From: a virus
Virus record (IMG/VR): IMGVR_UViG_3300028394_000366
Coordinates: 1-20,668 of that record
Direction: 5' to 3' (one strand)
DNA: 20,668 nt
A program made the translations under genes and the position numbers. The notes under the pieces are model-generated. The model was given only the letters and a program-made list of their open reading frames with translations, was not told the origin of the DNA and did no database searches. Positions 4,450-20,532 of this stretch are shown piece after piece (position 1 is the first letter of the stretch; each line of letters starts with the position of its first letter).

Positions 4450-4484
4450 ATTTTTCTCCTTGTTTTATATCCGGTTTGTTATTA

Positions 4485-4492
4485 TATTTATG
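4485..4492 (-). promoter_or_regulatory. T4-type late promoter
   Basis: The minus strand reads CATAAATA, seven of eight matches to the T4 late consensus TATAAATA, with AT-rich sequence around it. It lies in the 55-base gap between the 695-aa and 200-aa genes. Predicted transcription starts near 4479, leaving about 30 bases of leader with AAGGAG before the ATG at 4449. No -35 box is expected for gp55/gp33-dependent late promoters. Confidence 0.6.
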
Positions 4493-4504
4493 CTTCAGTC
4501 ACTA

Positions 4505-6592: not shown

Positions 6593-6593
6593 C

Positions 6594-7454
6594 TCAATCT
6601 TTCATCGCCTGTTTGTTGGCGGTGGCATACATCACGTTTTTAGCACGATCACCATAACGCTCTTTGAATCCGGCCATACCTTTTTTCATCGACTTAACAA
6701 TGTGTTCACGTTTATTCATTTCACCGCCAGTCATGTGACGTTCTTCAATGTCAACTTGGTCAATACCGTTCATTAAATCTGCATCAATAACTTGAATGTC
6801 TTGTTCAACTGATTCTTGCTTAACTGCTTGAACAGATGCTTTTGCAACATCAGCTTGTGGTTTAGTACCAGCTGCACGTTTCTTTGCATCTTCTAAGTCT
6901 TTTACGAATTGTTCTGAATCAGGTTCTTCAATAATCAAATCTTCTTTTTTAATTGATTCAAAGAAAGTCTTTAGACCACCTTCTTTGTAGATGGCAATCA
7001 TCTCAGACATTTTCTTTTTCTTTTTCTCTGCATCAATAGCAGCCAATTCTTTATTTTTTGGTCCGTCTAATACATCAACTGCATGTGGTTCTGGCTTAGA
7101 TGCACCATATGAACGACCTTGAACTTTAGTTGATGGCAAATCAGCCATCTTAACTTCATCAATTTGTTCTTCTTCTTTAACGACTTCTTTTTTATATTTT
7201 GCAGCTAAAGCACCCTTATCAGCTGGAGTGCCACCACCTGCAGCTACTTGACCTTCTTTTGCTGGTGTCATTTCTTCAATCTTTTTCTTTTCACCTTTCA
7301 AGATTTTAAAGTCTTGACCATCAATTTTACCATTGTGGTTCTTATCAAGCTTAACTTGACCGCCTTTTAATTCTTCTTGAATTACTGGTAAACCAGCCAT
7401 GATTCGTGCAGCAACATCTGCAACATCACGGATTTGTTTATTATTTGAGTACAT
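6594..7454 (-). CDS. Lys/Glu-rich protein with EF-hand-like loop, probable head-associated protein
   Basis: This 286-aa protein begins MYSNNKQIRDVADVAARIMAG and then carries VIQEELKGG (IQE at 25-27, a possible prohead protease site). Next is a canonical calcium-binding loop at 37-48, DKNHNGKIDGQD: Asp37, Asn39, Asn41, Gly42, Asp45, Asp48. A long charged, low-complexity middle follows. The C-terminal module (MNKREHIVKSMKKGMAG to ERYGDRAKNVMYATANK, about 245-282) is common at the ends of marine T4-like phage proteins. AGGAG precedes the ATG. It stands between the DUF6321 gene and the 695-aa mosaic in the same direction and shares their composition, so a common role in the head is likely but unproven. 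Confidence 0.75.
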   Translation of the reverse strand: MYSNNKQIRDVADVAARIMAGLPVIQEELKGGQVKLDKNHNGKIDGQDFKILKGEKKKIEEMTPAKEGQVAAGGGTPADKGALAAKYKKEVVKEEEQIDEVKMADLPSTKVQGRSYGASKPEPHAVDVLDGPKNKELAAIDAEKKKKKMSEMIAIYKEGGLKTFFESIKKEDLIIEEPDSEQFVKDLEDAKKRAAGTKPQADVAKASVQAVKQESVEQDIQVIDADLMNGIDQVDIEERHMTGGEMNKREHIVKSMKKGMAGFKERYGDRAKNVMYATANKQAMKD

Positions 7455-7484
7455 TAATTTTCTCCTAGTTTAATTTTTTTATTC

Positions 7485-7781
7485 TTAGCAATTCCAACGG
7501 CGTAATGCTTTATTGATTGGTGAATCAGGATCTCTTGCATTTTCTGGATTAGTCAATCTCTTTTTCATACCACTCATTCTACTGCAAAAAGATTTTCTTC
7601 TGTTTGCATCTTTTGAACCTGCTTTTAGTTTAGATGGATCTTTTGTTACCGCAGTCTTTAACTTTGAGCCTGGATTTTCTCTACGATAGGCATTAACTGC
7701 CTTCTGTGAAAGACCATCTGTTTTATCGGCTTTATTGACTTTACTCCAGTCTTCGGAAATAAAAGATTTAAATGATTTCAT
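7485..7781 (-). CDS. DUF6321-like small basic protein with capsid-targeting-like N-terminus
   Basis: This 98-aa basic protein starts MKSFKSFISEDWSKV, which matches the T4 internal-protein leader MKTYQEFIAEA in length and in the positions of its aromatic and hydrophobic residues and Glu10 (cut motif ISE). The remainder (KTDGLSQKAVNAYRRENPG, then FCSRMSGMKKRLTNPENARD, then NKALRRWNC) matches what I recall as DUF6321, a small Arg/Lys-rich module found in phages and large DNA viruses. The charge would suit DNA binding inside the head. It overlaps the upstream 744-aa gene by four bases (ATGA). Its function is unknown. Confidence 0.8.
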   Translation of the reverse strand: MKSFKSFISEDWSKVNKADKTDGLSQKAVNAYRRENPGSKLKTAVTKDPSKLKAGSKDANRRKSFCSRMSGMKKRLTNPENARDPDSPINKALRRWNC

Positions 7782-10012
7782 ATGAATTTCTTCGCTTTGA
7801 AAGTTTTAAGGTTGATACCAACTCTTTTTAATTCACCTTCTTTTTGGTCACCAATTGATGCACCAGTTTCATCACCAGTCAACTCTTTAATAGTTTTCTT
7901 TTTTGGATCACGATTATATTTGCCGCCAGTTGTCGCAACAGTATTACTTACACCACGACTAAAGTTTTCACCAGAAGATGACATTGATAAACCGGGTTCA
8001 ATACCCATGTCTATAGATTCAATCACTTTTTCTTTCTGTTTTGCCCTAATTTCGGAGAGACTGATTGTTTTCTTACTGGCGAGCGTGTTTGTGGTTTCGG
8101 TGTAATAACCGGAGTCTTTACTTCCACTGGTGTCTGCACTTCCAACACTTGTTCTGGTACTTCCACTTTCGGCAAAGTAACTTGCACCGGTACTTCTACT
8201 GGAACTTCCTGTTTGACTTCCGTAACTGGCTCTTGCACCGGTTTCTTCGTGAATAGGTTCTTTAGATATTTCAACATTTTCATTCTCCTCTTTGATTTTA
8301 ATGGCATAACCATTTTTATATTTAATTACTTCACCATCGTGAGTGTGTGCATGTTTAGCCGCAGAACGGCGTAACAAAAACTTATACACATCACCACTAG
8401 GTTTACGCAGAAGTTTTACCTTCTTTCCTTCGAACAATTCAAGTATATCATCATTCAAGAATTCTTCTTTAACAGTTTTCTTTGCAGAAGTTCCTGTAGT
8501 TGGAACTTTTGGATTTGCAATTGGTTCTTTAGGCACTTCAACAAGTTTATCATGCACAGAACGATATGTGACTTTGCCCTGTTTGCCGTATCTACCAAAA
8601 CCGAAGTATTGTAATCCTAATTTTCTTGCTTGCTCAGCAGCTGCTGAATCAGGATGAGGTGGTTTCTCTGCACCATTTTTTGGTACAGGTAACGTATCTT
8701 TCTTTTCTAACTCTTGTGCAATCCACTCATCTGCTTGTTTTGTTTTTGGTGGTCTTGCAATGAATTCTTTGATGCCCTTAAAGAGTTGCATTAGTTCTTC
8801 TTTTTTTGCCTTTACAACAGCAGGATTGGCACTTCTCAAGTCTTCAGAGTTATCAAACTCCATATAATTTGCACCAAACAACTTTGAATACTCTGCTCTA
8901 GCTCTCTGTACATTGTCCCATTTATCTTTACGGATGTCTTCTGGCACTGTACGACCACCACGCATACCACGTTCTATGTTTCTCTTTTTAGATACTTCAT
9001 CGTGTGTATTAACTACAAGCATAGATGTTTCATATCCAGCTGATTCTAGTTTTTGTTTAATCTTCTTAGTCTTTTCAATGTCATCGCCTGTGCCATTGAT
9101 AATCAAACCATTTCGGCCTACAATTGCAAGACGTTGACGTAATTCTGTAATGTTCTTTGCACGACCACGAACAAGGTTTCTTTTTTCTTCTTCTGACGCA
9201 GGCATCTTCTTATCAAGACTTTCTTTGTCCATCAGAAACTCAAGTGCCTTATCAGAATTCATTTCAACTAGACCATGACCAGCAAGTGTATTGTCTAGTA
9301 CATAGTCTTTGCCTGAACCAGGACCACCAGCTAAAAACACGGCTTTAAAAATGCCATGATCGTGTACACCTTCTGTTAGAAAGATATCATCGAAATCATC
9401 ATTGATATCTTCTTTGACTTGCATACCTTTACGAACATCATGGTACATTTCTTTTGCATGATGTTCTGGTACATGAGATGGAATACCTTTTCTGAATTCT
9501 TTGAAATTACCAGTTTTTGCATGACCTCTCATCTTAGATGCAGACATGCCTGTAGTACCCTCAGCATCAGGATCACGTTCACCTGCATTGTGTACTGTAA
9601 TCTTTTTGAAGTTATACAACGCACCTTCGTGTGTGCCATTGTATTGTGCAAGTTTCTTTTTGTATTCTGGAACCCGATCCGATCCAGCAACCATGTGCAA
9701 GTGAGTTACACCTTTTTTGTGTAACTCAGCTGCATGTTGTAGAAAGGTGGGTTTTTCTTTGCTTGACGTAGAAAGATTCGTATCAGGAAAGAATCTTTTA
9801 GCGTGTTTGAGTTTTTGTTCTGCTGATAAAGGGTTTTTATCTTTATCTTGAGTATGAGATAGAACAACACTGTGCTCGCCGCTGTGTTGTTTAGAGACTT
9901 CTTTGACTTTGTTAACAACCAATTGATGGCCAGTTGTTACCGGATTTGCTCGCATAAAAGTAAAGGTGTGATGTACCTCTTTAGCTTCTCTCAAAAAATC
10001 TCTAAAATTCAT
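7778..10012 (-). CDS. nucleotidyltransferase - P-loop kinase mosaic protein, probable packaged polyprotein
   Basis: This 744-aa protein is modular. (1) Leader MNFRDFLREA with LRE at 7-9. (2) Cytidylyltransferase/NMNAT-like domain, about 15-195: FMRANPVTTGH (19-29) is the HxGH-type motif, then AGSDRVPEY, and GMSASKMR (155-162) replaces ISxTxxR. (3) P-loop kinase domain, about 220-415: Walker A GGPGSGKD (229-236) with Asp where Ser/Thr is usual, followed by Arg-rich segments (IERGMRGGRTVPEDIR). (4) Module KLGLQYFGFGRYGKQGKVTY (464-483). (5) Module GKKVKLLRKPSGDVYKFLL (529-547). (6) Ser/Gly/Thr-rich linker (about 595-645). (7) C-terminal tail after TIKE710. FLTE214-G and LFE528-G lie exactly between modules. 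NTase followed by kinase recalls NadR, but substrates are unknown. A GAGG is six bases before the ATG. Confidence 0.85.
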   Translation of the reverse strand: MNFRDFLREAKEVHHTFTFMRANPVTTGHQLVVNKVKEVSKQHSGEHSVVLSHTQDKDKNPLSAEQKLKHAKRFFPDTNLSTSSKEKPTFLQHAAELHKKGVTHLHMVAGSDRVPEYKKKLAQYNGTHEGALYNFKKITVHNAGERDPDAEGTTGMSASKMRGHAKTGNFKEFRKGIPSHVPEHHAKEMYHDVRKGMQVKEDINDDFDDIFLTEGVHDHGIFKAVFLAGGPGSGKDYVLDNTLAGHGLVEMNSDKALEFLMDKESLDKKMPASEEEKRNLVRGRAKNITELRQRLAIVGRNGLIINGTGDDIEKTKKIKQKLESAGYETSMLVVNTHDEVSKKRNIERGMRGGRTVPEDIRKDKWDNVQRARAEYSKLFGANYMEFDNSEDLRSANPAVVKAKKEELMQLFKGIKEFIARPPKTKQADEWIAQELEKKDTLPVPKNGAEKPPHPDSAAAEQARKLGLQYFGFGRYGKQGKVTYRSVHDKLVEVPKEPIANPKVPTTGTSAKKTVKEEFLNDDILELFEGKKVKLLRKPSGDVYKFLLRRSAAKHAHTHDGEVIKYKNGYAIKIKEENENVEISKEPIHEETGARASYGSQTGSSSRSTGASYFAESGSTRTSVGSADTSGSKDSGYYTETTNTLASKKTISLSEIRAKQKEKVIESIDMGIEPGLSMSSSGENFSRGVSNTVATTGGKYNRDPKKKTIKELTGDETGASIGDQKEGELKRVGINLKTFKAKKFI
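8023..8277 (-). CDS. possible overlapping gene: Pro/Val/Glu-repeat protein
   Basis: Inside the 744-aa gene, in another minus-strand frame, an 84-codon ORF starts at the ATG at 8277-8275 with AGGAG seven bases upstream, better than most SDs here. It reads MLKYLKNLFTKKPVQEPVTE, continues with PVEVPVQV and VEVPEQVLEV type repeats, and ends in a basic tail (SPKLGQNRKKK). In the same stretch the host frame is a Ser/Gly/Thr linker with many AGT, ACC, GCC and TCC codons, unlike the rest of that gene. A short GGAAGT-type DNA repeat explains both low-complexity readings, so the ORF may be an accident. Without homologues I treat it as a candidate only. Confidence 0.35.
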   Translation of the reverse strand: MLKYLKNLFTKKPVQEPVTEVKQEVPVEVPVQVTLPKVEVPEQVLEVQTPVEVKTPVITPKPQTRSPVRKQSVSPKLGQNRKKK

Positions 10013-10033: not shown

Positions 10034-10055
10034 TTAATACTCTATTTAGTATTAA
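10034..10055. repeat. 8-bp perfect hairpin between methyltransferase and nucleotidyltransferase genes
   Basis: TTAATACT (10034-10041) and AGTATTAA (10048-10055) are perfect inverted repeats around a 6-base loop. On the minus-strand RNA the 5' arm contains the stop of the methyltransferase gene, and the next ATG lies 21 bases after the 3' arm. There is no T-run after it, so it is not a classic terminator. Arm and loop together include ACTAAATA, a weak (6 of 8) late-promoter match. Confidence 0.5.
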
Positions 10056-10735
10056 TTAGTCCTGATAACTAAAACCTCATCAGATTTAACATATTCATTT
10101 GGATATTCCTGTGGTTCTTTTAAACCAATGTCACCTTTATCAAATACCACAATACTATCATAGACTGACATACATTTTGTGTGTAACGTATAATAATCTG
10201 CATCAATTTGACCTTTAGTGTGTGATGCATTAATTCTATCAACCATCGTTTTAGCAACATTATTGATAGAATCTGGATGACTAATACTTCCACCATGTGA
10301 TGGCCAATAAGCTGCGTGTGTATCTTCAATGAAGTATACTGCTTCTTTTGCAATACGCGGATATAACACTTCAAATGTTTTTCTTACATGGTCAACGTGA
10401 TGACTGCCATCGTCTAATACTACATCAAATTGGCCAAATTCTTGAATCAAACTAGCAAGAAACTTCGGATCAGACTGATCGCCAATACGAACATGTACGC
10501 CATTTTCTTCGTGTTCTTTACATGCAGGATTGATATCAATACCAACAATCACACTATCAGGATGAAAGTACTTCTTCCACATCTGCAATGAACCGCCATT
10601 GAGAATACCAATCTCAAGCATCTTAATTGGTTTCTCTGTCAATGGTTTAAAATGTTTCTCATACACCCAAAAGTAATGAGTCCATTTAGTAATCTTTTTG
10701 CCGGTGTTATTTAACCAATATTCTTGTAAGTCCAT
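10052..10735 (-). CDS. class I SAM-dependent methyltransferase
   Basis: This is 227 aa from the ATG at 10735-10733, which has GAGG five bases upstream and lies just after the previous stop (10743). A longer in-frame start at 10807 would overlap that gene by 65 bases and has no good SD. The SAM-binding motif I is MLEIGILNGGSL (39-50), motif II ends in VGIDINP with Asp67, and FDVVLDDGSHH (103-113) gives the acidic and His residues found in Methyltransf_24 and sugar O-methyltransferases. FIEDTHAAYWPSHGG follows. It is the last gene of the sugar island, so the substrate may be a sugar or a glycan end, but this is inferred from context. A cephalosporin-hydroxylase-like variant of the same fold is the main alternative. 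Confidence 0.85.
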   Translation of the reverse strand: MDLQEYWLNNTGKKITKWTHYFWVYEKHFKPLTEKPIKMLEIGILNGGSLQMWKKYFHPDSVIVGIDINPACKEHEENGVHVRIGDQSDPKFLASLIQEFGQFDVVLDDGSHHVDHVRKTFEVLYPRIAKEAVYFIEDTHAAYWPSHGGSISHPDSINNVAKTMVDRINASHTKGQIDADYYTLHTKCMSVYDSIVVFDKGDIGLKEPQEYPNEYVKSDEVLVIRTN

Positions 10736-10742
10736 AATATCC

Positions 10743-11435
10743 TCAGTAAGTTTCTGTTGCACCTGTTCCGGCCACGATTCCGTCACAATGTAGTTTATCA
10801 AATTCAATCAAATGATCGTGCTTTATATATCTATAGTGGGCGTGTTCAGTATCTAGACCTAATTCTTGCACAGTCTTAAAACAACCCATTAACACACCAA
10901 GATAATCATTTAGTAATGATGGGCAGAATGAATACATTCTTGTAATGAACAAGTAATCATTCTCATTCTTCCATGATGGCATCTTTTTCTTAAACACATA
11001 CTTGCCAAATAAATTATCATATTCTTTGATATCAAAGGAATCGTGTAGTGTACTTCTTGCAGAGAACTTAAAGATTCTTTTAACAGAAGCCATCATGTTA
11101 TTGTCAGTATTACTCATCAACAATCTAAGAGTCTTGAACAATAATACAATTTCTGATTCACTCTTGCGACCATTAGATGCCAACAATTGAATATCAGGAT
11201 CGGTATTCCAACATGCAAGAACATCCACAAGCGGCGCAATCTCTTTCAGTTTGTGTTCTTCTACTGCATTTGGTGATCCATCAGTAAACACAATGATATC
11301 ATTTGGAAAATGTTTACGCAAAGAATGTAAAGAATCCATCGTTTGTTTAAATCTATCTTCTGGTTGTACAACACCAATAACAGGATTTAATGCAGATGTA
11401 ACTATAATTAAATTTTTATCTGGTAATAAGCTCAT
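10743..11435 (-). CDS. putative glycosyltransferase (GT-A-like)
   Basis: This 230-aa protein starts with a beta-strand LIIVTSALNPVIG, continues with a helix and then DIIVFTDGSPNAVEEHKL (46-63), and has FKFSARSTLHDSFDI (122-136). That last block resembles the S/GR-x-x-L-x-D-D-F motif of a group of phage and bacterial glycosyltransferase-like proteins. The C-terminal part has a Cys/His-rich stretch (KHDHLIEFDKLHCDG). No clear DxD is seen, so activity is uncertain. It overlaps the epimerase gene by 20 bases and is followed by the methyltransferase at eight bases. The SD is weak. Its place between sugar genes supports a role in glycan building. Confidence 0.6.
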   Translation of the reverse strand: MSLLPDKNLIIVTSALNPVIGVVQPEDRFKQTMDSLHSLRKHFPNDIIVFTDGSPNAVEEHKLKEIAPLVDVLACWNTDPDIQLLASNGRKSESEIVLLFKTLRLLMSNTDNNMMASVKRIFKFSARSTLHDSFDIKEYDNLFGKYVFKKKMPSWKNENDYLFITRMYSFCPSLLNDYLGVLMGCFKTVQELGLDTEHAHYRYIKHDHLIEFDKLHCDGIVAGTGATETY

Positions 11436-12414
11436 AATTTTTCTTCATTGTTTCTGTCATCAACTTAGATATTGTGATGTTTGGCATCCAACCTAGTTCC
11501 CACAGTGCTTTTACATAAGAACCTAAAGAAAACTTATTGACTTCTCTTTCAACTGCATCTTTAGATATTGATAAATTGTAACTATACCAATATTCTTTTG
11601 AAGGCATAAATTCATACTTTAAATCACCAAATGCGATAACGGCAGATTGAACAACGTCTTTTACAGATGTTAATGTGCCTGTGCATACATTATAGATTTG
11701 TCCTTTTGCTTCTGGTTTATTGACACACAATTCAATCAACTTCACCACATCATCAACATGAACATAATCCCGTTTCTGTTCACCATTTGAGTAGAATGTG
11801 CATGGTTCTCCATTAGCAACTTGCTTTACGATATAATTTAAAAGTGGTGGTGATGGACGATGCACATCTTGCCTTGGCCCAAACACGTTGAAGAATCTTA
11901 GTGTCACAATATCCATATCATAGTTGGTAATATAAGATTGTACTACATCTTCCATTAGTTTCTTTGATAGTGGATAGAACAATGTTGGTTTAACTTGTAG
12001 ATTCTCAAGGAACGGTGCCTCTTCTTCAGTATTACCTTCATAGATGGCCGATGTACTTGCAACAATGGTTCGTTTGACACCAGCATCTTTGGCTGCTTTG
12101 AGAACAGAGGCAGTGCCTGCAACATTGACACTCAAACACTCAGCAGGATTAGATTCACATTCAGGTAAAGATGTTAATGCAGCCAAATGCACAATAACAT
12201 CAGTCTTGTTAAACTGCAAAAGTTCTGTTAGTTTGATTGTTTCACGAATATCAAGTGCAACTGCATCACAGACTTGCTTGTCATTATCATATAGGTTCTC
12301 CATGTAACCATGGCTAAAATCATCTAGTGCAACGACTATATGACCATTCTTAGTCAATTCAATGCATAAGGTTGAACCAATACCACCTGCACCACCAGTA
12401 ATCATTATATTCAT
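11416..12414 (-). CDS. NAD-dependent sugar-nucleotide epimerase/dehydratase (extended SDR)
   Basis: This 332-aa protein is a full-length extended SDR. The NAD-binding motif is GGAGGIG (7-13), with Asp31 in VALDDFSHG to hold the adenosine ribose and VIVHLAALTS (74-82) next. The catalytic residues are Ser/Thr in VASTSAIYEG (118-127) and YPLSK (Tyr147, Lys151). RFFNVFGPRQ follows, with substrate-loop residues after it. This is the UDP-glucose 4-epimerase/WbpP/dTDP-glucose dehydratase superfamily; the exact reaction cannot be told. It acts on nucleotide-activated sugars in the cytoplasm and fits the neighbouring nucleotidyltransferase. It overlaps the coiled-coil gene by four bases. Confidence 0.88.
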   Translation of the reverse strand: MNIMITGGAGGIGSTLCIELTKNGHIVVALDDFSHGYMENLYDNDKQVCDAVALDIRETIKLTELLQFNKTDVIVHLAALTSLPECESNPAECLSVNVAGTASVLKAAKDAGVKRTIVASTSAIYEGNTEEEAPFLENLQVKPTLFYPLSKKLMEDVVQSYITNYDMDIVTLRFFNVFGPRQDVHRPSPPLLNYIVKQVANGEPCTFYSNGEQKRDYVHVDDVVKLIELCVNKPEAKGQIYNVCTGTLTSVKDVVQSAVIAFGDLKYEFMPSKEYWYSYNLSISKDAVEREVNKFSLGSYVKALWELGWMPNITISKLMTETMKKNYELITR

Positions 12415-12596
12415 GCTAATTTATCCACGTTTTGGCCATTTCTATTCATTTCACGATTCAATTTCAACCTATTTTCTTCAAGTTGTTTCAATCTATCATC
12501 AAGACGCCTTCTCTCCATAATTAATGCATCATGCTGTTTTTCTATTTGATGTTTTTCAAGTTGCCGAACTTGTTGTTGTACTCTTTCTATTTTCAA
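12411..12596 (-). CDS. 61-aa coiled-coil protein
   Basis: This short, highly charged protein is predicted to be one continuous helix: VQQQVRQLEKHQIEKQHDAL followed by RRRLDDRLKQLEEN with Leu/Ile at heptad spacing. It overlaps both neighbours by four bases (ATGA), which argues that it is a real, coupled gene and not noise. It has no membrane segment. A role as an adaptor or oligomerisation piece for the sugar enzymes is possible but not supported by more than position. Confidence 0.7.
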   Translation of the reverse strand: MKIERVQQQVRQLEKHQIEKQHDALIMERRRLDDRLKQLEENRLKLNREMNRNGQNVDKLA

Positions 12597-13618
12597 AGCA
12601 TTTCTCCTAGTGTATCAGTATCTCGTTTAAGATTAATTGCAACTGCGGATGGATATGGATTAGAGTTTGCATAATCATTAATCACAACTCGGCAAGAATG
12701 ATTTGCTTCCATGATTAGAATATACTCTTTAAATCCCAACTCATCTAAAATATTTCGTGTGTAACTCTCATACTTATTCTTACGAGCAGTTACAAACACC
12801 AGTTTGCAACCACGGGATTGTTCTTTCAATAATACAGCCACATTACCCACAATCGGTTCATATGGTGCATCGTGAAAGTCTTTAGTCTTAATTATTGTGC
12901 CGTCAATGTCGCAGAAGTATGTTGGCTTGTCATTGTACTTGAACCAATCATCGGCAGTACCCACATCAACAAAGTTCTCAACTTCTTTTTCTGTAAATAC
13001 TCGGTCATTTGAAATCATGTAATCAATAATGTTAGATACAAAAATTTCTGAAGTAGAACTGTCTTTTAGTGTTTCAAACGTATCAACATATTCACCAATA
13101 CTCGCAAACTGATAACCACCAACACAGAAAGAATCACTTACAATTTGTTTTTCAACAACAGAAGTAATGATACCTTGTTCATTAGTAATGGTGTAACTCT
13201 TTGCAGGTGCATTACGAATATCAGGATTCTTTGACAACTTAGAAACATAAATTGCATTACCATCAATCAAATCTGTATCATAAAACCCATCACAATCTTT
13301 AATTAACATCGGTGAAACTGATGTGAAGGAATACTCAGCCTTCATTATGGCCTGATAGACTGTATCAGCAGGACCACTGGTCGGTTCATCTAGTACAACG
13401 ATGTTAACTTTGTCACCAAAGGCATCACGCAATTTATTCTCTGCGTTAAACTTTTCATTATGTTGTTTTAAAATAGCAATTGTGATGTTGTGTTTGCCAA
13501 TAAAATGTTTGGCTGCATTCTCAATCATCAACTTGCCGCTGTAATCAGTCAACAAATATTTTGGTCTTAGGTTAGGAAACCTAGTAGATAGACCCGCACA
13601 TGGCATAATTATTTCCAT
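12593..13618 (-). CDS. sugar nucleotidyltransferase fused to HAD-type phosphatase
   Basis: This 341-aa bifunctional protein has two domains. Residues 1-225 are a GT-A nucleotidyltransferase: MPCAGLSTRFPNLRPKYLL (5-23) has the Gly, Arg and Lys of the NTP-binding loop, SGPADTVYQA (81-90) follows, and KDCDGFYD (107-114) holds the metal-binding Asp. VGGYQFASI and FVDVGTADDW follow, as in sugar-1-phosphate nucleotidyltransferases. Residues about 233-330 are a HAD domain: DIDGT (237-241) with the nucleophile and acid Asp, FVTARK (275-280), and VVINDYANSNPY (311-322) with the motif IV acid. HAD domains commonly remove phosphate. Together they could make an NDP-sugar in two steps. The gene overlaps the APH-type kinase gene by ten bases. 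Confidence 0.85.
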   Translation of the reverse strand: MEIIMPCAGLSTRFPNLRPKYLLTDYSGKLMIENAAKHFIGKHNITIAILKQHNEKFNAENKLRDAFGDKVNIVVLDEPTSGPADTVYQAIMKAEYSFTSVSPMLIKDCDGFYDTDLIDGNAIYVSKLSKNPDIRNAPAKSYTITNEQGIITSVVEKQIVSDSFCVGGYQFASIGEYVDTFETLKDSSTSEIFVSNIIDYMISNDRVFTEKEVENFVDVGTADDWFKYNDKPTYFCDIDGTIIKTKDFHDAPYEPIVGNVAVLLKEQSRGCKLVFVTARKNKYESYTRNILDELGFKEYILIMEANHSCRVVINDYANSNPYPSAVAINLKRDTDTLGEML

Positions 13619-14355
13619 AATCTTCTCACTTCTCTCATTAAATATTCTTTATCTTTTTCATTAGTAGTATAAGGCAAAACTCGCATCAACATTAGAATCA
13701 GTAAATAGTGATTCTCATTATGTACAAAATTGTTTAGTTTGTCTATAATGAGATACAGTTTTGAATCAAGATATACATCATCATTTCTTATGAACCACTT
13801 ACACACAAGGTCTTGTCTCAACTTAGCTAAATCAAATACAAACGAATCAAACTCAGTTGTCAATGGATCTATCAGTACAAATTTATCATTCTTTGTATCA
13901 TACAAAATGTTTTCAAGTGTAAAGTCACCGTGATACTCAGATGCAGGTAGAATCTTAGGTAACTTATCTATCAATTCATCTGCCGTAAAAGGCATCTCAA
14001 ATTTTGTAAAATCAAACTTAGATAACTTATTTCGGTATGTTTCAGTATAGTCTTTTTCGTATGTATTCTTTGATAGATTATACACTATTTCCTGAATAAA
14101 GTCAACTAGTTTATTGGCCTTATTAAAGGACAAATACTTCTTCATCTCTAGGCAAGAGATGTATTCCATATCATAATAGTTACCATAAATCTCATATATT
14201 TTAGGTAAGTTGATATTGTAATTGGAAAGAACATCGTATCTTTCCAAGTTGCGGGCAATATCACCAGTTTTTCTTACGAAGATTTTATCATCATCTTGCA
14301 TTAAAGAAACATGACTGGCAGAATGGCCTTTCAGTTCTTTTAATGTTTTTACCAC
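13609..14355 (-). CDS. APH/choline-kinase-like small-molecule kinase
   Basis: This 248-aa protein has the catalytic loop YHGDFTLENILYD (141-153) with Asp144 as base and Asn149, and a metal-binding FVLIDPLTTEFD (159-170) with Asp163. Lys29 in KIFVRKTGD may be the ATP-binding lysine. This is the APH superfamily (aminoglycoside, choline and sugar kinases). It overlaps the nucleotidyltransferase gene by ten bases. A kinase followed by a nucleotidyltransferase recalls choline kinase/CTP transferase (LicA/LicC) or the MurNAc kinase/uridylyltransferase pair, so I infer it phosphorylates the sugar or alcohol that the next enzyme activates. The substrate is unknown. Confidence 0.75.
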   Translation of the reverse strand: MVKTLKELKGHSASHVSLMQDDDKIFVRKTGDIARNLERYDVLSNYNINLPKIYEIYGNYYDMEYISCLEMKKYLSFNKANKLVDFIQEIVYNLSKNTYEKDYTETYRNKLSKFDFTKFEMPFTADELIDKLPKILPASEYHGDFTLENILYDTKNDKFVLIDPLTTEFDSFVFDLAKLRQDLVCKWFIRNDDVYLDSKLYLIIDKLNNFVHNENHYLLILMLMRVLPYTTNEKDKEYLMREVRRLWK

Positions 14356-15053
14356 TTTGCGAAATCATCTCTAACTAATGAGTGTCTTGTACCGTTGTGA
14401 GCGCCAGGACCAAATGGATGGTTCATATTGCAGTACACGAGATTCTCACCGACTAAATCAGATACTTTCCAATTCATACTCATCATTTCTTCACCAATCA
14501 TTGTAACACCGACATCATAGAATTCATCTATACGATTAAACACGTTACAATACTTATCCATGTTGCGTGACGATGAGAAAGCAAACTGATCGTTGCCAAA
14601 GTCTCTATTCGGTGTCATTCGACAGTTTGGAATGTACAACTTAGAATTGTCTAGTTCTTCAAATGGAATTTCAGTATTCAATGCAAAATCAAAACGTGAA
14701 CGAATGACCCAATCGAAGTTCATTCCAAATTCTCTTTCATATTTCACCTTTAAAGAGTTGGCTTTATTCAACGAATAGAATTGTGCCCATGTAGACAACG
14801 CAGGATTCTTTACTTTCCAATTTGGTTGTGGTGGTGGTACTCTTGTGTACTTTGATAAGTCTGGTTCTTGTGGCGGTTCTTTTAACCACAACTGACTGTT
14901 TGTATATAAGTTTAGTATCTCAGTTTCACTCACAGTATTCCATGTGTGAAAAAATACTGTAACATTGTGTTTGTCAAGTAAATTCTTTTTTACAAATGGA
15001 AAAGCCTTGTCAAAAGACCTTGCTTGACCAGATAGGCATAATGCAACTCTCAT
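14349..15053 (-). CDS. putative glycosyltransferase (SGQARSF type)
   Basis: This 234-aa protein starts MRVALCLSGQARSFDKAF and has VFFHTWNT (33-40), QFYSLNKANSLKVKYE (91-106) and WVIRSRFDF (115-123). This set (SGQ-x-R, H-T-W, QFYS-x-x-K, R-x-R-F/Y-D) is what I know from GT-A-like phage and capsule proteins. RxRFD would act as the metal or nucleotide motif. It ends close to the kinase start (seven-base overlap). It is similar in plan to the next protein, which has MAGHIRTF and SRYDTH at matching places. The donor and acceptor are unknown; head, tail or host surface glycans are possible acceptors. Confidence 0.65.
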   Translation of the reverse strand: MRVALCLSGQARSFDKAFPFVKKNLLDKHNVTVFFHTWNTVSETEILNLYTNSQLWLKEPPQEPDLSKYTRVPPPQPNWKVKNPALSTWAQFYSLNKANSLKVKYEREFGMNFDWVIRSRFDFALNTEIPFEELDNSKLYIPNCRMTPNRDFGNDQFAFSSSRNMDKYCNVFNRIDEFYDVGVTMIGEEMMSMNWKVSDLVGENLVYCNMNHPFGPGAHNGTRHSLVRDDFAKW

Positions 15054-15054
15054 A

Positions 15055-15765
15055 TCATCTCTTTATATGAACGGGTAAATCAATCGCAATGTATGGTGTA
15101 TCAGTTTCAAAGAAGTTTCTCATACACAACATATGTGGACAGTATCGTCTTTCATCATGTAACATGATATCTCTTTGACCATTTTCCCAAAAGAATTTAA
15201 TACTCAACCATTCTTTTGTTTTCTTACTGAATCTTTTTGACATAATTTCTTCAGCTCTTGGGTAGAAGAAATACTTATCGGCATATTTCCATGGCACAAT
15301 TGCAAAGATATCAGACACCATTCCATATTGTTCATTCGTTGGTGTAACCACAACATCAGAATAATCTTTTACTAGATTGCGTAATTTGAATGGGTATAAA
15401 TGTGTATCATATCTACTGAATATAATATTATCATATTCTTTTTCAATCAACTCAAATGCTTTTCTGCGAGCAAAGTGCATTGATAATGTAACGTGATTTC
15501 TATCATTAACCATCAAGTCTTTAGGATTCTTCTTTGCAATTCTTTCTTCTGCATCAAAGAATTGTTCTGCATAAGTTTCGTTCTTTTCAACTAACCATTT
15601 TACTGGTTTCAACATTTTAATAACAAAATCAATTTCTTCTTGATTGCCTTCATCCCAAATAAACAAATAAACATCTAATTCATTTTGTTCTTTAAAATGT
15701 ACAACTTCATCGGCAATATCTTTGAATGTTCTGATATGCCCAGCCATTACTAATGCATTAGTCAC
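15055..15765 (-). CDS. putative glycosyltransferase (AGHIRTF type)
   Basis: I set the start at the GTG at 15765-15763, giving 236 aa beginning MTNALVMAGHIRTFKD. AGGAG lies seven bases upstream, and the start overlaps the previous gene by eight bases. An ATG at 15810 would overlap by 53 bases and add residues without homologous look; an ATG at 15747 has no SD. The core has LDVYLFIWDEGNQEEI, the motif FSRYDTHLYP and VVVTPTNEQYGMVSDIFAI. The layout parallels the following SGQARSF protein, suggesting duplicated, diverged transferases. Enzyme activity is inferred, not shown. Confidence 0.65.
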   Translation of the reverse strand: MTNALVMAGHIRTFKDIADEVVHFKEQNELDVYLFIWDEGNQEEIDFVIKMLKPVKWLVEKNETYAEQFFDAEERIAKKNPKDLMVNDRNHVTLSMHFARRKAFELIEKEYDNIIFSRYDTHLYPFKLRNLVKDYSDVVVTPTNEQYGMVSDIFAIVPWKYADKYFFYPRAEEIMSKRFSKKTKEWLSIKFFWENGQRDIMLHDERRYCPHMLCMRNFFETDTPYIAIDLPVHIKR

Positions 15766-16594
15766 CGTACTTCTCCTCGATGATCTTACGCCATTCTGGA
15801 ACTCTATCATACTGATGAACGATGTAGTATGGTGTTCCAGTTGATGTTACCACTATGTCACCAACTAACTTAGGAGTTCTCTCTAATAGATATGGCCTGA
15901 ACTCACCAATCTTAGATGGATCAGCCGTAGTTCCTAATTGACATGCCCAACCATCTTCTGAACAAGTATACTTACATGTATCAAGATATGGATGCATTGA
16001 TATCATAAAGTTAAAAGTTGATTGGTCACAGATTGGGATTGGTTTACCCAAACATGAAGTAAAGATATTGATTGCAATATCTCTCATTGCAGTACCAGAA
16101 CCTGCAAGAACACCTACGTTATAAATTTCATTTTTTCTATAAATGTCATGCAAGAATGGTCCATAGGTTTCTAAGAGATTCTTATCACCCCACGGTTCAT
16201 GTTTGTATAACAAACTTTCAGATGAGAATACAAGATTTTCAGAAATAAGATTAGCTTCTAACCAATCAATTGGATTCTGTTGAAAAATAACGTCTTTAAC
16301 ATCGGTTGTAATTACATACCGATATTCATTATTGCGTAGGTGATTGTAGATGTGAGCAAAGCGCTCAACGTGGATTGGTAATTGAGATTCATATTTCAAA
16401 TTACCATCGGCATCTTTATTGATTGCTACAACTGTAAATCCAGATGCAACAACCTGTTCAACTGTGTTCTTGTCACAATTAAAAAGAACCAGTACTTTGT
16501 CACCTTCAAAGCCTGATTTGTTGATTGAGTTAACCCAATACTTTAATTTATCCCAATCGTAGTTGGTGCTTGCGCCTATAATCAAATCTTTCAT
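15758..16594 (-). CDS. glycosyltransferase (GT-A fold, DxxD type)
   Basis: This 278-aa protein begins MKDLIIGASTNYDWDKLK and has YRYVITTDVKDVIFQQNP (91-108), where the Asp98/Asp101 strand is typical of GT-A enzymes that bind a nucleotide-sugar through a metal. IYNVGVLAGSGTAM, DQSTFNFMISMHP and a C-terminal YIVHQYDRVPEWR complete the pattern I know from capsule and phage transferases of this group. It is the first gene of the sugar island. CTGGAG stands seven bases before the ATG, preceded by an AT-rich possible late promoter. Confidence 0.75.
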   Translation of the reverse strand: MKDLIIGASTNYDWDKLKYWVNSINKSGFEGDKVLVLFNCDKNTVEQVVASGFTVVAINKDADGNLKYESQLPIHVERFAHIYNHLRNNEYRYVITTDVKDVIFQQNPIDWLEANLISENLVFSSESLLYKHEPWGDKNLLETYGPFLHDIYRKNEIYNVGVLAGSGTAMRDIAINIFTSCLGKPIPICDQSTFNFMISMHPYLDTCKYTCSEDGWACQLGTTADPSKIGEFRPYLLERTPKLVGDIVVTSTGTPYYIVHQYDRVPEWRKIIEEKYGD

Positions 16595-16906: not shown

Positions 16907-17042
16907 TTTTTTCTTCCGTTGCGTTTTCGTATCCCCGAGCAAAATCTGATGCATCGGCTTCTAGACCTTCTTGGTTTAAATACGGATTACTATACTTTTT
17001 ATTATTCAAAGATAATTCATAACCTTCTTCATATGGTGCCAT
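16887..17042 (-). CDS. 51-aa small protein, unknown function
   Basis: This short gene lies between the DUF6267-like gene and the 93-aa gene. It starts at the ATG at 17042-17040, overlapping the previous stop by one base (TAATG), with GGAG six bases upstream. It reads MAPYEEGYELSLNNKKYSNP, then YLNQEGLEADASDFARGYEN, and ends ATEEKNGRKEI with TGA at 16889-16887. It has no membrane segment. The DFARGYE ending resembles the C-terminus of small soluble phage proteins, but no family is recognised. SD, coupling and fit in the gap make it a real gene. Confidence 0.7.
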   Translation of the reverse strand: MAPYEEGYELSLNNKKYSNPYLNQEGLEADASDFARGYENATEEKNGRKEI

Positions 17043-18274
17043 TACTTACTCCAATTTTTAGCTGCGTTAAAGTTAGCATGAGCAAATTCTAGTCTATCAA
17101 TTAACTTAACTGCATTACCTTTTAATTTATCTACTGCCACAAAACCTTCTGGATTAGTCACTCTGTAACCATCATCTGTACGAAGGAATGTACCAGTAAC
17201 TTGTTTTAGTTGTTGTAACTTCTTAACAATCATATTCTTTGCATCAACAACATAATTCATCATATCAAAAATTCTAACTAAGTCAGTTCTTGAATTGCGA
17301 AAGAAACGCATAATCTCTGTCTTCTGTAAAGACTTCTTATGTTTAGTATCTTCTTTCTTTGCATCAGCAATATCTTTATTTAGCTTCGCTTCAACCCAAC
17401 GAATCAATTCTGTTGTGTGTGCTTGTGTGTCTCTAATCTTTAGACCTTCACGCACTTTTGTGTTATTGAAAGTCTTGATGTATGTTAGAATAACATCACT
17501 TGCAGCTATTCTATTTAGCGACAAAGAACTAATTGACTGTAATGTTCTACCAGCAACAGATAGAATGCCTGTAATTTGTTTTGTTTCTTCTTCAGTGAAT
17601 GATGCAGTACCAGATGCATCAACAAAATATGCATCACGAAACCAAACATCTTTAGTTGTTGTTAGATTCTTAATATCTATGTTGAATGATGCCTTCATAT
17701 CAGAGAATGTTTTACCTGTGTATGAAGTATGAAAGACAATACCCATTTGTGCAGATGTCATTGTCTTTGCAAGTTTGGAATCTGATGGCACAGCGTATAC
17801 AATTGTGTTTGGTTGAAACGTAATGTATTCTTGGCCATCAATATTCTTTTCTGTGATATCACCTTTAGCAAACATCATATCGCCTTGCAGAACACCCTTG
17901 ATGCCTAATTTAGGCAAATATCGCAATGCAACTTTCAGTTTAGCATTTAAACCTTCACTTGAATGGTTGTTATCAATATCTTCATCGGTGTAATTCAACT
18001 TAGGGTTTGCGTTGAATACGCCTTTAGTACCAACAAAGAACTTACCATTGTCTGGATTAATACCGCAGAATACAGCAGGTGCACCATCCCATTTTGTAGT
18101 AAGATTTACTTTAGATGTAGAATGGCCTGCAAGCATATCTCGCAATGATTGAAGAAAGTTAATAGTATCACGAGCGCCATTGACACCACGATTCAGTATC
18201 TCATCTTCAATGTGTTCAAGGTGCAAATTAGCACCTTCTTTTTTCGATTCGGTTAAAAATTGTGCGAAGTTCAT
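17042..18274 (-). CDS. DUF6267-like protein with ligase/nucleotidyltransferase motifs and capsid-targeting-like N-terminus
   Basis: This 410-aa protein starts MNFAQFLTESKKEG; LTE at 7-9 would be a prohead protease site. NLHLEHIEDEILNRG and TINFLQSLRDMLAG match what I know as DUF6267 of marine T4-like phages. After VNLTTKWDGAPAVFCG, KWDG (61-64) looks like motif I (KxDG, nucleotidyl-lysine) of ATP-dependent DNA/RNA ligases. GTKGVFN (82-88), KGVLQGDMMF (126-135, motif III-like with Asp for Glu), PEGFVAV (375-381, motif IV-like) and VKLIDR (389-394, motif V-like) follow in order. A mainly helical insert (about 230-350) separates III from IV. It could seal nicks or RNA. The ATG overlaps the previous stop by one base and has a weak SD. 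Confidence 0.75.
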   Translation of the reverse strand: MNFAQFLTESKKEGANLHLEHIEDEILNRGVNGARDTINFLQSLRDMLAGHSTSKVNLTTKWDGAPAVFCGINPDNGKFFVGTKGVFNANPKLNYTDEDIDNNHSSEGLNAKLKVALRYLPKLGIKGVLQGDMMFAKGDITEKNIDGQEYITFQPNTIVYAVPSDSKLAKTMTSAQMGIVFHTSYTGKTFSDMKASFNIDIKNLTTTKDVWFRDAYFVDASGTASFTEEETKQITGILSVAGRTLQSISSLSLNRIAASDVILTYIKTFNNTKVREGLKIRDTQAHTTELIRWVEAKLNKDIADAKKEDTKHKKSLQKTEIMRFFRNSRTDLVRIFDMMNYVVDAKNMIVKKLQQLKQVTGTFLRTDDGYRVTNPEGFVAVDKLKGNAVKLIDRLEFAHANFNAAKNWSK

Positions 18275-19374
18275 TAACTATACTTTATAAAAATACTACT
18301 ATTCTTTGTCGATGAAGATGCATATTCATATATGTATTTACACAAAGCATCCTGCTTTTTTTCTTTCATAACGGTGTAAACCAAATCAATACCAATATAT
18401 TTGGACATCCACCAAGTTTTATCTTGTCTTTGTCCGGCTTTTGCTTGATTAATTAGTGTATCAAGTTTTTCATTTGTACCAGATAATTCTTTAAACATCA
18501 TAGCAAACTTTTTAAAATCCGCTTCAGTTGGTTTTTCAATTGGTACTTGATTTGGTAAAGTCAATTTAGACCTTGAGATGCCAATATCTTGAGCACCTTG
18601 AAATATTATACCACCGCCAATTTTACCACCTGCAGCCGCCTTGCCTTTGATCTCGCCTTGCCATGAAGATGGAACAGGACGGCCTGAGAAATTTCTTAAT
18701 TGAACTTCTCCATCTTTACCTTCAGATTTGTATTGAAGGTAAATGTCTTTTGAATCGATCATATTTCGACCAAGTTTTATTCCAGTAAATTCTGCAATCA
18801 ATGGTTTGCCATTATTAAAAAGCTTAGAATGTGGAATATCTTTAGGTCCAATTTTCTTCAATGAAATACCAATCATATTGGTATATGCAAACTCATCATA
18901 AACATAACGATTGTATTCGGTTAAAGTATCAAAATCTTTACGCAATTTAAAACTCTTTTTAATCATCCAAATATCAGCAGGATTCCATTTATCATCACCT
19001 GTGATTCCACTTCCACTTTTAAATTTACGCCAATTACTATAGATAGAATCTACAAGAGAACCACCACGATAAAATTTAAAATTTTTACCACTTGCAGCAC
19101 CAGGAACTTCTGAGAAAATTAAGTTAGCGGTTAAAACCACACTTCTGAACCAGTTCTCATCTAAACCCTTCATACAGGCTTCTAAAGTTCGGTCACAATC
19201 TGCATCACCAATAGTTTGTTTTGTAATCTGTGATACATCTACCAAATCTTCACCAAAATGTTGTCTTGTAGCGCAAGCATATGCTTGTAAACTTTCTGCA
19301 AGAGCAGTAATTTCTGAACCAGCACCAGAAACTTTACCTTCTGTATCATTATTGACTTTTGTTGGGATTCTCAT
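18274..19374 (-). CDS. conserved phage protein with possible PD-(D/E)XK nuclease core
   Basis: This 366-aa protein contains a helix with Glu (ITALAESLQAYACA, 22-35), then GDDKWNPADIWMIKK (126-140) with Asp134, then a hydrophobic strand and charged end MIGISLKK (167-174) with Ser171 and Lys173. Helix-Glu, strand-Asp and strand-SxK is the order of the PD-(D/E)XK nuclease core, with Ser in place of the second acid, as in some variants. I recall the WNPADIW...GISLKK pair from other phage proteins of unknown function. The rest (GKIGGGIIFQGAQDIGISRS) is not recognised. It precedes the ligase-like gene, overlapping it by one base. A hairpin with the SD and a possible late promoter stand just upstream. 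Nuclease activity is a hypothesis. Confidence 0.7.
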   Translation of the reverse strand: MRIPTKVNNDTEGKVSGAGSEITALAESLQAYACATRQHFGEDLVDVSQITKQTIGDADCDRTLEACMKGLDENWFRSVVLTANLIFSEVPGAASGKNFKFYRGGSLVDSIYSNWRKFKSGSGITGDDKWNPADIWMIKKSFKLRKDFDTLTEYNRYVYDEFAYTNMIGISLKKIGPKDIPHSKLFNNGKPLIAEFTGIKLGRNMIDSKDIYLQYKSEGKDGEVQLRNFSGRPVPSSWQGEIKGKAAAGGKIGGGIIFQGAQDIGISRSKLTLPNQVPIEKPTEADFKKFAMMFKELSGTNEKLDTLINQAKAGQRQDKTWWMSKYIGIDLVYTVMKEKKQDALCKYIYEYASSSTKNSSIFIKYS

Positions 19375-19416: not shown

Positions 19417-20532
19417 TTATCGAATTATGTCAAGCACTTTATCACCAGTCCAAACTTCTTGTTCTGTACGAATACGACCTTCAGTCTTTAACGTATCAAA
19501 TCGATTGATAGCCTTCTTACGCCACCACTCTGTGATGTTGGCCAGATTATGTTTCTCATAGTTCTCACCTGGAATTAACTTATCAGTCTTTCCATTTACA
19601 AAATCAACCATATTCTTAAATCCATAGTCAGAAATAAAGTACCGTTTTTGTTCGTTTAAATTCTTGGCATTGTCAATAGTCTGTGCAAACTTAGCAGCCT
19701 CTGGCGTGCCTTTGAGGCCAATCTTAATCATAGACACCATTGCATTAGAAATCTTCAACTTGCGTGACGAAGCGCCTTCTGGTGCCAATGGTTCACCAAT
19801 AATGCCTTCTATGTATTCTTTGAGGTCACTATAAGTTTTACCATGCAACATCGGTAAGAAATCACTATCAGTTAACCCTTTGAAACGAATCAGAGGTTTC
19901 ATACCATCATACTGTGATACTGCTTTTGAAGAACCATACAAACTGGTTGTCTCAAACAAGCAGGTGGTCATCTTATACTTTTCATCCAACATTCTCCGCA
20001 CTTCATGTGTTGTACAGATGGCTGCAAGTAATTTACCACCAAGATAATTAAAACCAAATGGTTGTGAAGGCACAATCACGAAACCCATGGCCGCACATTG
20101 ATTAAACAATTGAGCACCACCTTCATGTTGTGTGAATACTTGACCTAGCATATTATTACGAGGTTTACAATTGATAACAGGAGAACCAAGACGAATGAAA
20201 CCAACCCACTTCTGTGACTTCTTTTCAAACACAGCCAGTCTCAAACACCGGCCAGGAATACTGGTCATATTTGAGTGACTAGAAATCATATTAAGATAAA
20301 TGTCCCATCTATCTTGTGGCAACTCAAGGATTTCAAATTCCATATTAGCGGGTGACATGGTAAAATCAGAGAACAAATCTTCTTCTGGTCCCATGCCAGG
20401 CAAAGTAAATGGTCTTTCTGCCATTGAGTTTAGTTTTTGTTCACGCATGTATTCATCAATACGACCAAACTTATCAAAGTAGTTTGAGAATACATCAGCA
20501 CAATGCACCGCTTGTTCTTTAGTTAGCGTCAT
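19417..20532 (-). CDS. DUF4338/DruA-like conserved phage protein
   Basis: This 371-aa protein has a middle part (about 108-220) that reads WVGFIRLGSPVINCKPRN, then LFNQCAAMGFVIVPSQPFGF, NYLGGKLLAAI, a helix with DEKYKM, and CLFETTSLYGSSKAVSQYDG. The order (I-x-LGSPV, LGGKLLA, Tyr followed by an ETT/ETF strand, then G-S/T...Y) resembles DUF4338, the family of the Druantia component DruA, which also occurs in phages. What DruA does biochemically is not settled. The N- and C-terminal parts are helical and unrecognised. It overlaps the upstream gene by four bases (ATGA). Phage homologues need not be defensive; a DNA-processing role is only a guess. Confidence 0.55.
   Translation of the reverse strand: MTLTKEQAVHCADVFSNYFDKFGRIDEYMREQKLNSMAERPFTLPGMGPEEDLFSDFTMSPANMEFEILELPQDRWDIYLNMISSHSNMTSIPGRCLRLAVFEKKSQKWVGFIRLGSPVINCKPRNNMLGQVFTQHEGGAQLFNQCAAMGFVIVPSQPFGFNYLGGKLLAAICTTHEVRRMLDEKYKMTTCLFETTSLYGSSKAVSQYDGMKPLIRFKGLTDSDFLPMLHGKTYSDLKEYIEGIIGEPLAPEGASSRKLKISNAMVSMIKIGLKGTPEAAKFAQTIDNAKNLNEQKRYFISDYGFKNMVDFVNGKTDKLIPGENYEKHNLANITEWWRKKAINRFDTLKTEGRIRTEQEVWTGDKVLDIIR

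What the first reader, a model, noticed from the sequence alone, without database searches (positions are those of the whole stretch)
17042..18274. DUF6267-like protein carries ordered motifs of a nucleotide-dependent ligase
KWDG (61-64), GTKGVF, KGVLQGDMMF, PEGFV (375-379) and VKLIDR appear in the order of motifs I, Ia, III, IV and V of the covalent nucleotidyltransferase superfamily. The family is usually left as unknown function. The helical insert between III and IV and the Asp in motif III make it atypical.
Basis: partly seen in the sequence, partly recalled or inferred. Interest (0 to 1): 0.7.

Follow-up and report, generated by a model that had tools for sequence, protein, structure and literature searches.

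The report
Hidden ligase-like enzyme of marine phages
A protein of unknown function, carried in one copy by the T4-like marine phages examined here, appears to be a very divergent relative of the enzymes that join broken DNA or RNA strands, and it usually sits beside a gene that looks like a strand cutter.

Summary
The gene (17042-18274, minus strand, 410 aa) matches PF19782/DUF6267 (E 1e-113). The motifs lie where stated. Lys61, Asp63, Gly64 and Asp132 are invariant in 374 distinct relatives; Glu376, Gly377 and Lys390 are kept in 373. Two AlphaFold2 models were made: the window protein (pLDDT 84) and a natural 302-aa relative with a much smaller insert (pLDDT 91). For both, all 50 best-aligned PDB entries belong to the covalent nucleotidyltransferase (ligase) superfamily, Naegleria RNA ligase first (Z 9.2 and 8.7). 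Sequence profiles alone do not detect the kinship, and no existing ligase profile matches. DUF6267 is best read as a new divergent family with the ligase core: Asp for Glu in motif III, one Lys in motif V, a helical insert, no OB domain. In most clades the gene sits directly behind a restriction-nuclease-like gene (signature only) and ahead of a HIGH-type nucleotidyltransferase; two proteins fuse these parts. Nineteen of 19 DUF6267 phage records checked carry no recognised DNA or RNA ligase, but Stenotrophomonas phage DLP6 carries a DNA ligase as well, so DUF6267 is not simply a replacement. Activity, cofactor and substrate are untested.

The parts
17042..18274 (-). DUF6267 gene, 410 aa: divergent covalent-nucleotidyltransferase (ligase-like) protein
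   Evidence: (PF19782 E 1.3e-113)
18203..18223 (-). N-terminal HLEHIED (18-24), H18, H21, E23 and D24 nearly invariant; family-specific, role unknown
   Evidence: 371-373 of 374; D24 370
18083..18094 (-). Motif I KWDG (61-64); predicted nucleotidyl-lysine K61
   Evidence: K, D, G invariant 374/374; loop between strands 57-61 and 67-72
18014..18031 (-). Motif Ia candidate GTKGVF (82-87), K84 invariant
17879..17887 (-). Motif III QGD (130-132): Asp where ligases have Glu
   Evidence: Q130 and D132 invariant 374/374, in strand 128-136
17795..17812 (-). PNTIVY (155-160), possible motif IIIa region; P155, N156, Y160 invariant
   Evidence: assignment to IIIa is inference
17216..17593 (-). Helical insert (228-353) between motifs III and IV; contains invariant N271 and K346; much shorter in 302-aa relatives
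17138..17149 (-). Motif IV EGFV (376-379)
   Evidence: E, G 373/374, V 371/374; strand 377-382
17093..17107 (-). Motif V KLIDR (390-394): one Lys (K390) plus R394 instead of K-x-K
   Evidence: K 373/374, R 372/374; strand 387-392
18274..19374 (-). Upstream neighbour, 366 aa (phrog_1462), PD-(D/E)XK-like signature KWNPADIW ... IGISLKK; stop codon next to the DUF6267 start
   Evidence: nuclease assignment is inference from the signature
7778..10012 (-). HIGH-type nucleotidyltransferase + P-loop kinase (Zeta/PNK-like) protein, 744 aa; relatives lie directly behind DUF6267 in other phages

Best explanation
DUF6267 is a divergent family built on the covalent nucleotidyltransferase (polynucleotide ligase) core. 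It most likely takes a nucleotide onto Lys61 (motif I), with Asp132 (motif III), Glu376 (IV) and Lys390 (V) around the pocket, and passes it to a nucleic-acid 5' end to seal a break. It most likely works inside a phage end-processing module together with the upstream restriction-nuclease-like protein and the downstream HIGH nucleotidyltransferase (and P-loop kinase in some lineages). DNA is the more likely substrate, judged by context; RNA is nearly as possible, judged by fold. Shown: conservation, predicted fold, gene neighbourhood, fusions. Inferred: the catalytic steps, the substrate, the nuclease identity of the neighbour, and the cooperation between the parts.
For: Invariant K61/D63/G64/D132 and near-invariant E376/G377/K390 in 374 relatives. 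Two models of 410 and 302 aa with pLDDT 84 and 91. For both, all 50 listed PDB entries are ligase-superfamily proteins: Naegleria RNA ligase Z 9.2/8.7, TbREL1 8.3, Trl1 8.0, T4 Rnl1 7.8/8.0, T4 Rnl2 7.8, DNA ligases lower. For the short model, Foldseek's first eight hits are also ligases, though weak. The Naegleria mutants (K170, D172, E227, E312, K326) have the same K-x-D spacing in motif I and the same 14-residue IV-V spacing as K61/D63 and E376/K390. Gene order nuclease-like / DUF6267 / NTase recurs across clades and also in Stenotrophomonas phage DLP6 outside the replication cluster. DUF6267+NTase fusions: S-PM2 mutant 591 aa, and L444/L445 936-938 aa with a third part carrying GAGDVKIGDYQVEVKS. 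Clade E members follow DNA methyltransferases.
Against: Foldseek alone gives no PDB hit with E<=0.001. The Z values (5-9) lie in a range that can reflect a common arrangement, although the consistency of the list argues otherwise. hhalign against T4 Rnl2 and DNA ligase profiles is not significant. Motif III has Asp instead of Glu, and motif V lacks the second Lys. There is no OB domain or motif VI. Model coordinates could not be inspected, so superposition of the catalytic residues is inferred from motif order and spacing. The nuclease-like assignment of the neighbour has no Pfam or PDB profile support.
Confidence: 0.68

Rival explanations
1. DUF6267 is the long-missing replicative DNA ligase of T4-like cyanophages, a non-homologous stand-in for T4 gp30 that seals Okazaki fragments.
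For: PMC2984593 states that gp30 homologues are not found in cyanomyoviruses and allows for unidentified distant homologues. Nineteen of 19 DUF6267 phage records have no PF01068, PF09414, PF09511 or PF01653 over the cut-off, while T4 has the first three and no DUF6267. In most marine isolates examined the gene lies just behind uvsX/gp41.
Against: Stenotrophomonas phage DLP6 has both a DUF6267 module and a PF01068 DNA ligase (PMC5349666). No OB domain/motif VI, which DNA ligases need. Clade E copies lie by uvsW and methyltransferases instead. The same paper notes that host ligase can substitute for gp30.
Confidence: 0.2
2. DUF6267 is an RNA-repair ligase (tRNA or mRNA) used with the kinase and nucleotidyltransferase against host RNA-cleaving defences, like T4 Pnkp + Rnl1.
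For: The best structural neighbours are RNA ligases (Rnl5-type, REL1, Trl1, Rnl1, Rnl2). No OB domain behind motif V. A P-loop kinase with PNK-like matches is linked in some lineages. Phage ligase/kinase/NTase repair sets are described in PMC7824862.
Against: Neighbours are DNA-type: nuclease-like genes, DNA methyltransferases, the replication cluster. The linked NTase is HIGH-type, not the RlaP Pol-beta type named in that paper. The kinase is absent from most clades.
Confidence: 0.3
3. An active covalent nucleotidyltransferase that is not a ligase: it transfers a nucleotide to an end or another acceptor (capping- or marking-type reaction).
For: Asp in motif III, single Lys in motif V and no OB domain depart from known ligases; capping enzymes share the fold (weak hits 8p4c, 1p16).
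Against: Ligases, not capping enzymes, fill the aligned lists.
Confidence: 0.2
4. Chance motif order in a protein with an unrelated fold or chemistry.
For: Motif order alone occurs in 0.7% of shuffles; sequence profiles find no kinship.
Against: Invariance of exactly these residues and two models with ligase-only structural lists.
Confidence: 0.06

Closest known systems
PF19782 / DUF6267 (PHROG 455; 'T4-like GC 71' of cyanophages)
   Same: It is a full-length member; annotated as unknown function in the records seen
   Different: Nothing; this report proposes the fold and function of that family
Naegleria gruberi RNA ligase (Rnl5 type; 5COT, 6VT1-6VTG)
   Same: Best structural match (Z 9.2 and 8.7); motif I K-x-D; same IV-V spacing
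   Different: DUF6267 has Asp in motif III, one Lys in motif V, a helical insert between III and IV, and an N-terminal HLEHxED helix segment; about 10% identity
T4 RNA ligases 1 and 2, TbREL1, Trl1 ligase domain
   Same: Nucleotidyltransferase core aligned (Z 6.7-8.3; Rnl2 5.8-7.8); no OB domain behind motif V
   Different: No profile-level sequence kinship with T4 Rnl2; the C-terminal extra domains of those ligases are absent
ATP- and NAD-dependent DNA ligases (T4 gp30, LigI, LigA)
   Same: Core fold, KxDG, EGxV
   Different: No OB domain/motif VI; no match to PF01068 or PF01653; can co-occur with a real DNA ligase (DLP6)

Membership tests
PF19782 DUF6267 | Match to the Pfam profile over the gathering score | tested here: met
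   380.6 bits against cut-off 27, positions 1-376 of 376
Covalent nucleotidyltransferase superfamily | Motif I K-x-D-G with invariant nucleophilic Lys | tested here: met
   374 of 374 relatives
Covalent nucleotidyltransferase superfamily | Nucleotidyltransferase-domain fold | tested here: met
   Predicted models only; all 50 listed VIA-align entries for each of two models, best Z 9.2 and 8.7; Foldseek alone not significant
Covalent nucleotidyltransferase superfamily | Motif IV E-G and motif V Lys | tested here: met
   E376, G377, K390 each in 373 of 374
Covalent nucleotidyltransferase superfamily | Formation of a lysyl-nucleotide intermediate | not testable with these tools
   Needs labelled ATP/NAD+ and a K61A mutant
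Known RNA ligase families (Rnl1, Rnl2) | Match to PF09511 or PF09414 | tested here: not met
   Only PF19782 found in Pfam; no hit in 19 DUF6267 phage records, T4 control positive
Known RNA ligase families (Rnl1, Rnl2) | Motif III Glu and two-Lys motif V | tested here: not met
   D132 invariant; V/I at the second motif V position
ATP-dependent DNA ligase | Match to PF01068 | tested here: not met
ATP-dependent DNA ligase | OB domain with motif VI behind the nucleotidyltransferase domain | tested here: not met
   Chain ends 16 residues after R394
NAD-dependent DNA ligase (LigA) | Match to PF01653 adenylation domain | tested here: not met
PD-(D/E)XK nuclease (upstream neighbour) | D ... (D/E)-x-K active-site signature on the core fold | tested here: inconclusive
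   D-h...S-[LVIH]-K pattern in 226 of 245 members of five BLAST-separate clusters against 67 of 664 control ORFs (pattern chosen after viewing); no Pfam or PDB profile match; fold not predicted

The most novel reading that the evidence does not exclude
A previously undescribed phage system: an exchangeable sequence-specific nuclease, a new ligase family and a HIGH nucleotidyltransferase (sometimes with a kinase) encoded together or fused, which cuts DNA (host or competing phage) and reseals or protects the phage's own ends. In one form the ligase would use NAD+, and the fused NMNAT-like enzyme would rebuild NAD+ from the NMN released.
Probability: 0.22. Interest if true: 0.85.

Novelty: new variant of a known kind. 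Interest (0 to 1): 0.62.

Why it matters
T4-like cyanophages and pelagiphages are among the most abundant viruses in the sea. It was reported in 2010 (PMC2984593) that cyanomyoviruses lack the T4 DNA ligase and the T4 host-DNA-degrading nucleases; the review offered undetected distant homologues or substitution by host enzymes for the ligase, and an undescribed mechanism as one option for DNA degradation. A ligase-like family present once in each of 19 such phage records, usually next to a nuclease-like gene, is a direct and testable candidate for part of that gap. It would turn a universally 'unknown' family into an enzyme with a named nucleophile, and may add a new ligase scaffold for laboratory use.

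Tried and rejected
phmmer and profile HMM search of the PDB with DUF6267: no ligase found. hhalign of DUF6267 against T4 Rnl2 (14 and 73 diverse sequences) and T4 DNA ligase: not significant; the best local match pairs motif IV with motif IV (NPEGFVAVD / TAEGYVLKP) at P 0.18. Foldseek against the PDB with the window model: top rows are noise with LigA and T4 ligase scattered among them. Pfam/PDB profiles for the upstream gene: nothing. PDB profile search for the HIGH NTase: only weak hits, so its substrate is not assigned. Literature: no paper in the library mentions DUF6267. The simple 'replacement DNA ligase' reading was lowered after DLP6 proved to carry both. Cellular occurrence was rejected: genome-contig hits look like phage or phage-contaminated contigs (the Nonlabens contig is 99.5% identical in this protein to cyanophage P-TIM40).

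Full report
WHAT IS THERE. The finding's coordinates hold an ORF on the minus strand, 17042-18274, ATG to stop, 410 aa. Pfam assigns it to PF19782/DUF6267 over its whole length (E 1.3e-113) and PHROGs to family 455, a 764-position profile whose second half matches cytidyltransferase proteins. The motifs are at the stated residues: KWDG 61-64, GTKGVF 82-87, QGD 130-132, EGFV 376-379, KLIDR 390-394.

IS IT MORE THAN CHANCE. The ordered pattern alone is not impressive: 147 of 20,000 shuffles and 6 of 862 unrelated ORFs of at least 240 aa. The weight comes from conservation. Five scans of viral contigs and one of genome contigs, plus eight isolate loci, gave 374 distinct sequences of at least 260 aa, down to about 27% identity. 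K61, D63, G64, P66, K84, Q130, D132, P155, N156, Y160, H182, T183, Y185, N271 and K346 are invariant; E376, G377 and K390 are kept in 373, R394 in 372, H18 and H21 in 371 and 373. Most other positions vary.

FOLD. AlphaFold2 on the window protein with 87 aligned sequences gave pLDDT 84.1, pTM 0.79. The motifs fall where ligases have them: motif I in the loop after a strand (57-61), III in strand 128-136, IV in strand 377-382, V in strand 387-392. Six helices (228-353) are inserted between III and IV. A natural 302-aa relative with a much shorter insert, modelled separately, gave pLDDT 91.3, pTM 0.85. VIA-align against Foldseek's best 1000 PDB chains listed only ligase-superfamily proteins among the 50 best entries in both cases: Naegleria RNA ligase Z 9.2 (183-189 residues, 3.6-3.8 A) and 8.7 (176 residues, 3.8 A), then TbREL1, Trl1, T4 Rnl1, T4 Rnl2, archaeal RNA ligases and DNA ligases. 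The Foldseek ranking also held unrelated folds such as carbonic anhydrases, which did not reach the list. Foldseek's own E-values are weak (best ligase 0.77 for the long model and 0.035 for the short one), and Z values of this size need that consistency to be convincing. In the viral library, family members come first, and among the weak hits that follow are three viral RNA ligases. The Naegleria mutants named (K170, D172, E227, E312, K326) share with DUF6267 the K-x-D spacing of motif I and the 14-residue IV-V spacing. I could not inspect coordinates, so residue superposition is inferred.

HOW IT DIFFERS. Motif III carries an invariant Asp (QGD, QAD or QCD) where ligases have Glu. Motif V has K390 and R394 but not the second Lys. 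The chain ends 16 residues after R394, so there is no OB domain or motif VI behind the core. The invariant N271 and K346 lie in the helical insert, and an N-terminal HLEHxED segment is nearly invariant; whether these help build the pocket is unknown. No known ligase profile (PF01068, PF09414, PF09511, PF01653) matches, and profile-profile comparison finds no kinship. I therefore place DUF6267 in the superfamily by fold and motifs but not in any named ligase family.

WHERE IT OCCURS. tblastn finds it in 469 records of the phage collection, nearly all cyanophages (Synechococcus, Prochlorococcus), with pelagiphages, methylophages and a few others. In isolates examined it lies just behind uvsX and gp41 (S-PM2, HTVC008M, Melnitz-3, S-RSM4, S-IOM18, S-CAM9), or by uvsW in another clade (S-SM2). 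Nineteen of 19 DUF6267 phage records hold one DUF6267 gene (split into two matches in a few) and no recognised DNA ligase or T4-type RNA ligase over the cut-off; T4 is the reverse. A 2010 review (PMC2984593) states that cyanomyoviruses lack gp30 DNA ligase and the denA/denB nucleases. Its table of shared genes of unknown function includes S-PM2_138. By the tags of the re-sequenced S-PM2 mutant, S-PM2d138 is the DUF6267/nucleotidyltransferase gene, so S-PM2_138 is probably this gene (inference).

THE NEIGHBOURHOOD. Downstream, in several clades within a few hundred to about 1,700 bases, lies a HIGH-type nucleotidyltransferase (GRFNPPTTGHEKLI ... GSDRV ... GMSASKMR), with a P-loop kinase resembling Zeta/PNK in clade B and in the window. 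In the window a surface-sugar cassette (10052-16594) separates the two. Upstream, with a median gap of 3-76 bases by clade, lies a gene that differs between lineages: five BLAST-separate clusters nevertheless share a D-h ... S-[LVIH]-K signature typical of PD-(D/E)XK nucleases (226 of 245, against 67 of 664 control ORFs). The pattern was chosen after viewing, and no Pfam or PDB profile supports it. In clade E most upstream genes found are DNA methyltransferases. Two contigs of a MAG carry one 936-938 aa ORF with DUF6267, the nucleotidyltransferase and, in the one read in full, a C-terminal part with GAGDVKIGDYQVEVKS, a PD-(D/E)XK-like signature. S-PM2 has a DUF6267-nucleotidyltransferase fusion of 591 aa.

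MECHANISM. Most likely Lys61 attacks the alpha-phosphate of a nucleotide (ATP or NAD+), Glu376 and Asp132 hold the ribose and metal, Lys390 contacts the phosphate, and the nucleotide is passed to a 5'-phosphate end that is then sealed. All these steps are inferred from the superfamily. Context points to DNA ends made or handled by the upstream protein; the nearest folds point to RNA. A plain replacement of gp30 is less likely, because phage DLP6 carries the nuclease-like / DUF6267 / nucleotidyltransferase set away from the replication genes together with its own DNA ligase.

VERDICT. DUF6267 is best described as a new, divergent ligase-superfamily family of marine T4-like phages. Activity and substrate remain to be shown.

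Noticed in passing
window 18274-19374 (-) and the equivalent gene upstream of DUF6267 in loci L001-L329: At least five unrelated-by-BLAST gene families occupy the same slot directly upstream of DUF6267, all with a PD-(D/E)XK-like signature, as if the nuclease were exchangeable. Phage DLP6 (L543 4070-4987) has TPKSDFHF...WMSHK there as well.
   Followed up: partly
L444 1828-4638; L445 288-3104: Single ORFs of 936-938 aa fuse DUF6267 and a HIGH nucleotidyltransferase; the L444 one has a C-terminal part with GAGDVKIGDYQVEVKS. Contigs of a 'Firmicutes' MAG, probably phage.
   Followed up: partly
window 19417-20532 (-): Protein with a DruA domain (PF14236, E 5e-9), a part of the Druantia anti-phage defence system, here in a phage; tblastn finds relatives near DUF6267 in other loci, about 49% identical in one of the isolates.
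   Followed up: no
window 10052-16594 (-): Surface-sugar type cassette (epimerase/dehydratase, methyltransferase, kinase-like and several unassigned genes) inserted between DUF6267 and the nucleotidyltransferase/kinase gene.
   Followed up: partly
L082 (S-PM2 NC_006820) 5989-7768 against L544 (LN828717) 2992-4767: The DUF6267/nucleotidyltransferase gene is split in the reference S-PM2 sequence but is one 591-aa ORF in the re-sequenced mutant, so a sequencing error or real frameshift splits it in the reference.
   Followed up: partly
L438 (Nonlabens xiamenensis contig, 188 kb): The DUF6267 protein is 99.5% identical to that of cyanophage P-TIM40 and the contig length is close to that phage's genome; the bacterial assembly seems to hold a contaminating cyanophage.
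   Followed up: partly
loci L330-L409 (clade E): Short DUF6267 genes lie behind DNA methyltransferases of several unrelated types (N6_N4_Mtase, D12 class, others) instead of nuclease-like genes.
   Followed up: partly
L543 6715-8883 (phage DLP6): The nucleotidyltransferase protein has a C-terminal stretch resembling a ParB/Srx nuclease-type domain (KPIIASKDDKVIDGHHRWKA).
   Followed up: no
window 1534-2157 (-): GH19 chitinase-class lysozyme-like gene (PF00182), probable endolysin.
   Followed up: no
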